45,509 nucleotides of DNA from a virus. The stretch covers positions 17,093 through 62,601 of IMG/VR virus record IMGVR_UViG_3300002503_000004, one strand, 5' to 3'. The notes below the pieces were generated by a model that was not told the DNA's origin, made no database searches, and saw only the letters and a list, made by a program, of their open reading frames with translations. Made by a program: the position numbers and the translations under genes. Each line of letters starts with the position of its first letter. The first letter of the stretch is position 1. This document shows positions 22,520 to 22,648 of the stretch, one piece after another.

Positions 22520-22648
22520 AGCCCCCGGTAGGAATTGAACCTACAACCTATTGGTTACAGCCAATCGATCTTCCTTTGCTGAATTTACCCGTAGTCCTGT
22601 TGCCAGAAAGAGACAGGTAAACCTGTGCTTTTTTTGATCTACGGGGGC
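22520..22648 (-). ncRNA. tRNA-like RNA with ~64-nt D-loop insertion
   Basis: Acceptor GCCCCCG/CGGGGGC, T arm GTAGG-TTCAATT-CCTAC and a D stem GATC/GATC are all present, but about 64 nt separate the two D-stem strands instead of 7-11. The inserted part forms ACAGG-TTTA-CCTGT and can pair GGTTTACC with GGGTAAAT. The anticodon arm ATTGG-CTGTAA-CCAAT leaves a 6-nt loop with GUA after U33. It is unlikely to be a normal decoding tRNA. It resembles tRNA-mimic Y RNAs or an intron-bearing tRNA. Confidence 0.6.

What the first reader, a model, noticed from the sequence alone, without database searches (positions are those of the whole stretch)
22520..22648. tRNA-like RNA with ~64 nt inserted in the D-loop and a 6-nt anticodon loop
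Seen: perfect acceptor and T arms, but the D loop is about six times normal and contains its own hairpin ACAGG-TTTA-CCTGT. The anticodon loop has 6 nt. Decoding would be poor. Known: bacterial Y RNAs with a tRNA-like domain exist. Inference: a tRNA mimic, or a tRNA that needs intron removal.
Basis: partly seen in the sequence, partly recalled or inferred. Interest (0 to 1): 0.78.

Follow-up and report, generated by a model that had tools for sequence, protein, structure and literature searches.

The report
Phage tRNA mimic with extra domain
A phage carries a gene for an RNA shaped like a transfer RNA but with an extra folded domain in its D loop and a reading loop of the wrong size, and similar RNAs turn up in unrelated phages and a few tiny-genome bacteria, so it is probably a tRNA look-alike that does something other than translate codons.

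Summary
On the minus strand, 22648→22520 encodes a complete cloverleaf: acceptor 7/7, D stem 4/4, anticodon stem 5/5, T stem 5/5, with the usual tertiary bases. It has a 65-nt D loop and a 6-nt anticodon loop (CUGUAA). None of 60 shuffled windows gave such a structure. It lies in a probable ncRNA transcript with a second odd RNA (Gln-like, 8-nt anticodon loop, 77-nt variable-loop insert).

It is not unique. In a loop-blind survey of IMG/VR, 5 of 6 tRNA-like RNAs with large D-loop inserts had 6-nt anticodon loops, against 0 of 251 ordinary tRNAs in the same loci (p = 7e-10). Three small-genome bacterial MAGs have the same type. A separate family in 11 phages has a D-loop hairpin and an anticodon arm capped by a GAAA tetraloop. 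It covaries, and in most phages it lies beside YrlA-like and GOLLD RNAs.

Best reading: a non-decoding tRNA mimic carrying an extra domain in its D loop. Removing the insert would leave the 6-nt loop, so an intron does not explain it. It is not YrlA. Function (scaffold or decoy) is inferred. No close relative of the window's own RNA was found, so its conservation is untested.

The parts
22520..22648 (-). Thr(UGU)-like tRNA mimic: acceptor 22648-22642/22527-22521, D stem 22639-22636/22570-22567, anticodon arm 22565-22550 with loop 22560-22555 (CUGUAA), V loop 22549-22545, T arm 22544-22528, discriminator U at 22520, no encoded CCA
   Evidence: exact cloverleaf in the MFE of the RNA and of the 673-nt transcript
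22571..22635 (-). 65-nt D loop with the inserted hairpin domain; GG of G18/G19 kept just before the D 3' strand
   Evidence: insert MFE -17.1 kcal/mol
22743..22888 (-). second odd tRNA-like RNA, Gln(UUG)-like body; anticodon loop of 8 nt (CUUUAGGA) and a 77-nt variable-loop insert with possible pseudoknot (UUUGACAA/UUGUCAA crossing AUGCUGG/CCAGCAU)
   Evidence: Rfam tRNA 49 bits
22895..23035 (-). structured leader with a long (about 14 bp) closing stem
   Evidence: MFE z = -3.8
22645..22745 (-). hairpin module between the two tRNA-like RNAs
   Evidence: MFE z = -2.5
22395..22520 (-). hairpin module after the tRNA mimic
   Evidence: MFE z = -2.4
23047..23075 (-). probable sigma-70 promoter TTGACA-17-GATAAT (11 of 12 matches)
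   Evidence: consensus match only
22373..22402 (-). probable intrinsic terminator, 13-bp stem then T-rich tail
   Evidence: consensus match only
22291..22362 (-). ordinary tRNA-Gly(UCC), 7-nt anticodon loop, beyond the terminator

Best explanation
A phage-encoded, non-decoding tRNA mimic. It folds like a tRNA (acceptor helix, D/T elbow), so it is probably trimmed and perhaps CCA-tailed by host tRNA-processing enzymes, and may be bound by tRNA-handling proteins. The anticodon loop is off-size and not suited to normal decoding. The D loop, at the outer corner of the L shape where extra nucleotides are tolerated, carries an added hairpin domain. It is made from one probable transcript together with a second expanded tRNA-like RNA and three other structured modules. 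The most likely use is as a stable tRNA-shaped scaffold or decoy for a tRNA-binding protein during infection. Shown here: the anatomy, the statistical link between D-loop insert and off-size anticodon loop, and its recurrence. Inferred: transcription, processing, lack of decoding, and the scaffold/decoy role.
For: Complete cloverleaf, 21/21 pairs, with tertiary bases; none in 60 shuffles. Loop-blind survey: 5 of 6 large D-insert tRNA-likes have 6-nt loops against 0 of 251 normal-D tRNAs in the same loci, Fisher p = 6.7e-10. Seven of ten known 6-nt loops (window CUGUAA not among the seven) could close further into a pair plus tetraloop, e.g. C-GUGA-G, C-UCAC-G, U-UUCG-G; weak, p = 0.038. Independent family in 11 phages: D-loop hairpin plus anticodon arm capped by Y-GAAA-R, closing pair changing C-G to U-A; 17 cells with changes on both sides against 5.8 in shuffles, adjacent to YrlA-like RNAs and GOLLD in most of them. 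Odd RNAs co-occur within a phage: window (6- and 8-nt loops), G011 (6-, 5- and 11-nt loops), G017 (6-nt loop and an anticodon-arm insert). Promoter and terminator flank the unit. YrlA has been proposed as a competitive inhibitor of an anticodon nuclease (PMC7790460).
Against: No close relative of this RNA was found, so conservation of the window copy is untested. The D-insert RNAs are diverse in sequence and may be independent oddities rather than one family. Six-nt loops also occur in phage tRNAs with normal D loops. In about half of the 6-nt loops the sequence reads N-anticodon-AA, so residual decoding is not excluded. In the one tested phage-tRNA counter-defence case read here (retron-Eco7) changing the anticodon abolished protection (PMC11555353), which speaks against a decoy without an anticodon for that system. 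No expression data. Pair probabilities of the inner arms are only 0.28-0.55.
Confidence: 0.52

Rival explanations
1. A working phage tRNA-Thr(UGU) of unusual shape: the D-loop hairpin is tolerated and the 6-nt loop still reads ACA, perhaps poorly or with frameshifting, or resists host tRNA nucleases.
For: Body and loop resemble tRNA-Thr(UGU) with one base missing 5' of the anticodon. ACA is used for 18% of Thr codons. L223 and L014 carry D inserts with 7-nt loops containing UGU. Three small-genome bacterial MAG contigs carry the same type; two encode ACCA ends. Phage tRNAs that counter tRNA-cleaving defences are documented (PMC11555353).
Against: 6-nt loop, strongly linked to D inserts; the GAAA-capped family cannot decode conventionally; no encoded CCA (though the normal tRNA-Gly nearby has none either); TAA is a stop in 20 of 42 ORFs, so the neighbouring Gln-like RNA is not a UAA suppressor.
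Confidence: 0.22
2. A decaying tRNA gene (pseudogene) that gained an insert and lost a loop base.
For: No relatives of this copy; low Rfam tRNA score (20.3 bits).
Against: All 21 stem pairs and the tertiary bases are intact, including an A-U in place of the commoner C-G in the D stem; the insert itself folds stably; recurrence in unrelated genomes.
Confidence: 0.12
3. An interrupted tRNA whose D-loop insert is spliced out.
For: Removing the insert gives a tRNA-sized molecule.
Against: The anticodon loop would still be 6 nt; no bulge-helix-bulge at the ends, far too short for a group I intron, no Rfam intron match.
Confidence: 0.03
4. A domain of one large structured phage RNA (about 670 nt, in the manner of GOLLD or ROOL) rather than a separate RNA.
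For: The whole unit from promoter to terminator folds as consecutive modules, z = -2.8. GOLLD is encoded near tRNAs and can contain one (PMC12286853, PMC6582537). Sealed tRNA-likes lie beside GOLLD in other phages.
Against: No GOLLD or ROOL match in the window; most D-insert RNAs elsewhere stand alone; a free acceptor end suggests RNase P cleavage.
Confidence: 0.11

Closest known systems
YrlA (bacterial Y RNA, RF02553)
   Same: non-coding RNA with a tRNA-like domain and a D/T elbow
   Different: in the Rfam YrlA model the order is T arm, closed acceptor hairpin, D arm, with ends joined to a long stem; here the tRNA order is normal, ends are at the acceptor, and the extra domain is in the D loop. 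Score 20.9 against 69
phage tRNAs that counter tRNA-cleaving defence (PMC11555353)
   Same: phage-encoded, probable strong promoter
   Different: those are ordinary tRNAs that need their anticodon; this has an off-size loop and a D insert
GOLLD (RF02032) phage RNA arrays
   Same: phage structured RNA near tRNA-like genes; sealed tRNA-likes found beside it in other phages
   Different: no GOLLD in the window
tmRNA (RF00023)
   Same: tRNA-like ends without a usable anticodon
   Different: about 129 nt, has a full D stem and anticodon arm, no tag reading frame recognised, no Rfam match
non-canonical tRNAs (tRNA-Sec, allo-tRNAs; reviewed in PMC7609411)
   Same: deviating arm sizes in a tRNA
   Different: the passages read there describe changed stem lengths, not a D-loop domain with a 6-nt anticodon loop

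Membership tests
canonical tRNA (RF00005) | score over the curated cut-off | tested here: not met
   20.3 bits against 29; E = 0.0035 in own record
canonical tRNA (RF00005) | acceptor, D, anticodon and T stems with tertiary bases | tested here: met
   21/21 pairs
canonical tRNA (RF00005) | 7-nt anticodon loop | tested here: not met
   6-nt loop CUGUAA
canonical tRNA (RF00005) | aminoacylation and decoding | not testable with these tools
   needs experiment
YrlA / Y RNA (RF02553) | match to the covariance model | tested here: not met
   20.9 bits against 69, partly overlapping the RNA
YrlA / Y RNA (RF02553) | permuted tRNA-like domain on a long Ro60-binding stem | tested here: not met
   normal tRNA order with free acceptor ends
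YrlA / Y RNA (RF02553) | Ro60/Rsr (TROVE) protein in the genome | tested here: inconclusive
   no TROVE domain among the proteins searched; the VWA protein beside a MoxR ATPase has no TROVE match, but not every ORF was searched
spliced tRNA | bulge-helix-bulge or group I intron | tested here: not met
   insert ends in open loop, no intron family matched
GOLLD/ROOL | match to the covariance model | tested here: not met
   no match in the window

The most novel reading that the evidence does not exclude
Phages and some small-genome bacteria carry a recurrent, undescribed kind of tRNA mimic: a full tRNA body whose anticodon arm has been closed off or resized and whose D loop displays a variable extra RNA domain, i.e. 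a natural tRNA-scaffolded RNA, often in sets within one phage and sometimes next to YrlA-like and GOLLD RNAs.
Probability: 0.4. Interest if true: 0.8.

Novelty: new variant of a known kind. Interest (0 to 1): 0.62.

Why it matters
tRNA finders skip or misname these genes, so a layer of phage non-coding RNA may be unseen. If they are non-decoding mimics, they could show how phages engage tRNA-binding machinery or tRNA-cleaving defences without making a tRNA, and they make the role of tRNA-like parts in phage RNA arrays (GOLLD, YrlA-like) testable.

Tried and rejected
Ro60/YrlA: a VWA protein beside a MoxR ATPase (G000:13780-16571) looked Ro60-like by size but has no TROVE match; dropped. UAA suppressor for the Gln-like neighbour: TAA ends 20 of 42 ORFs. 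Close relatives: tape-measure relatives are distant and carry no tRNA match; three other proteins gave none. First pattern scan is full of ordinary tRNAs with a chance upstream match; only candidates with a full cloverleaf were kept. Variable-loop inserts like the Gln-like RNA: candidates elsewhere were mostly two adjacent tRNAs joined by the script; L134:8524-8625 is one plausible case. An idea that all 6-nt loops end in UAA was an effect of the first few cases; later ones do not. Literature searches for D-loop inserts in phage tRNAs returned nothing relevant; only open-licence papers were searchable.

Full report
What is there. The window is G000:C1:17093-62601 of a 62.6-kb IMG/VR virus record. 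On its minus strand, 22648→22520 encodes a full tRNA cloverleaf: acceptor GCCCCCG/CGGGGGC, D stem GAUC/GAUC, anticodon arm AUUGG-CUGUAA-CCAAU, V loop AGGUU, T arm GUAGG-UUCAAUU-CCUAC, discriminator U, no encoded CCA. The D loop is 65 nt. The anticodon loop has 6 nt. The tertiary bases of the tRNA core are present by inspection. Sixty shuffled windows gave no comparable structure, and the RNA folds better than its shuffles (z = -3.3).

Surroundings. A near-perfect sigma-70 promoter (23075-23047) and an intrinsic terminator (22402-22373) frame a probable 673-nt transcript (consensus matches, not proof). Its MFE is a row of modules: structured leader, Gln-like RNA, hairpin, the mimic, hairpin, terminator. 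The Gln-like RNA (22743-22888) scores 49 bits as tRNA but has an 8-nt anticodon loop and a 77-nt variable-loop insert. A normal tRNA-Gly follows the terminator.

Relatives. Close relatives of the phage were not found, so the window's own copy has no conservation test. I therefore asked whether the anatomy recurs. Six large D-insert RNAs remained (L067, L107, L109, L115, L153, L158); five have 6-nt anticodon loops. In the same loci 251 strictly filtered normal-D tRNAs all have 7-nt loops (Fisher p = 6.7e-10). The script gives 7-nt loops a bonus, so this errs on the safe side. L014, L223 (both 7-nt) and L265 (6-nt) came from other scans. A stricter pattern for the 6-nt type gave three contigs in all of IMG/VR, all true, so the strict form is rare; the pattern's sensitivity is unknown. 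The same pattern in 84,980 bacterial and archaeal genomes gave four places, three of them true (L306, L307, L309). Those MAGs are about 0.5-0.8 Mb; two are labelled Patescibacteria or Nomurabacteria. Nearby genes in L307 are cellular (FtsW/RodA, sugar transferase), so the type is not confined to phages.

A second family. One search also caught 11 phages with a tRNA-like RNA that has a short D-loop hairpin and an anticodon arm ending in Y-GAAA-R with a 2-nt bulge. Its stems covary (17 cells changed on both sides against 5.8 in shuffles, none of 500 as high), including the tetraloop's closing pair (C-G in nine, U-A in two). The sequences are related, so the shuffle count is not a probability, but sliding the partners destroys the signal. 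In seven of nine contigs examined a YrlA-like RNA (30-41 bits, below the cut-off of 69) adjoins it, and in eight of nine GOLLD lies downstream, two of them cut off at the locus end. This family shows that phages do keep tRNA-shaped RNAs that cannot present a normal anticodon. It is not a demonstrated homologue of the window's RNA.

How it probably works. A tRNA body with intact acceptor and elbow is what RNase P, the CCA-adding enzyme and T-loop modifying enzymes recognise (general knowledge). Without a proper anticodon loop it is a poor decoder. Positions 16-17 of the D loop point outward from the L shape, so a domain can sit there without breaking the fold (general knowledge of tRNA structure). 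I infer a tRNA-shaped scaffold or decoy. YrlA, another tRNA mimic, has been suggested as a competitive inhibitor of an anticodon nuclease (PMC7790460). Against a simple decoy, a phage tRNA that counters retron-Eco7 needs its anticodon (PMC11555353).

Rivals. A functional but odd tRNA-Thr is the strongest: several 6-nt loops read N-anticodon-AA, and two bacterial copies have encoded ACCA ends. A pseudogene is unlikely given intact stems. Splicing would not repair the anticodon loop. The unit might instead be one large structured RNA.

Verdict. The feature is real and unusual, and its anatomy recurs. That it is a non-decoding mimic is likely but unproved; its partner is unknown.

Noticed in passing
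L134:8524-9977; L157, L182, L092, L097, L072, L120: Conserved phage RNA array: a YrlA-like RNA directly beside a GAAA-capped tRNA-like RNA, with GOLLD downstream; L157 and L182 also carry a tmRNA.
   Followed up: partly
L307:1276-1455: In a Patescibacteria MAG, directly after the D-insert RNA, a tRNA-Pro-like gene of 180 nt with about 107 extra nt, apparently in the anticodon arm.
   Followed up: partly
L302:877-992 (-): tRNA-like RNA in the L265 phage with a normal D loop and a long insert in the anticodon arm.
   Followed up: partly
L301:3271-3374 and L304:183-257: Phage G011 has further tRNA-like RNAs with 5-nt and 11-nt anticodon loops.
   Followed up: partly
L186, L194, L195 and others: A widespread phage tRNA with a normal D loop and a 6-nt anticodon loop CAUUAA and encoded ACCA.
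   Followed up: no
window 22130-22245 (-): Possible remnant of another tRNA: T-arm-like GGAGG-UUCGAUA-CCUGC with a weak acceptor match; does not fold better than shuffles.
   Followed up: partly
L010:13780-16571 (G000): MoxR-type ATPase followed by a VWA-domain protein outside the window.
   Followed up: partly
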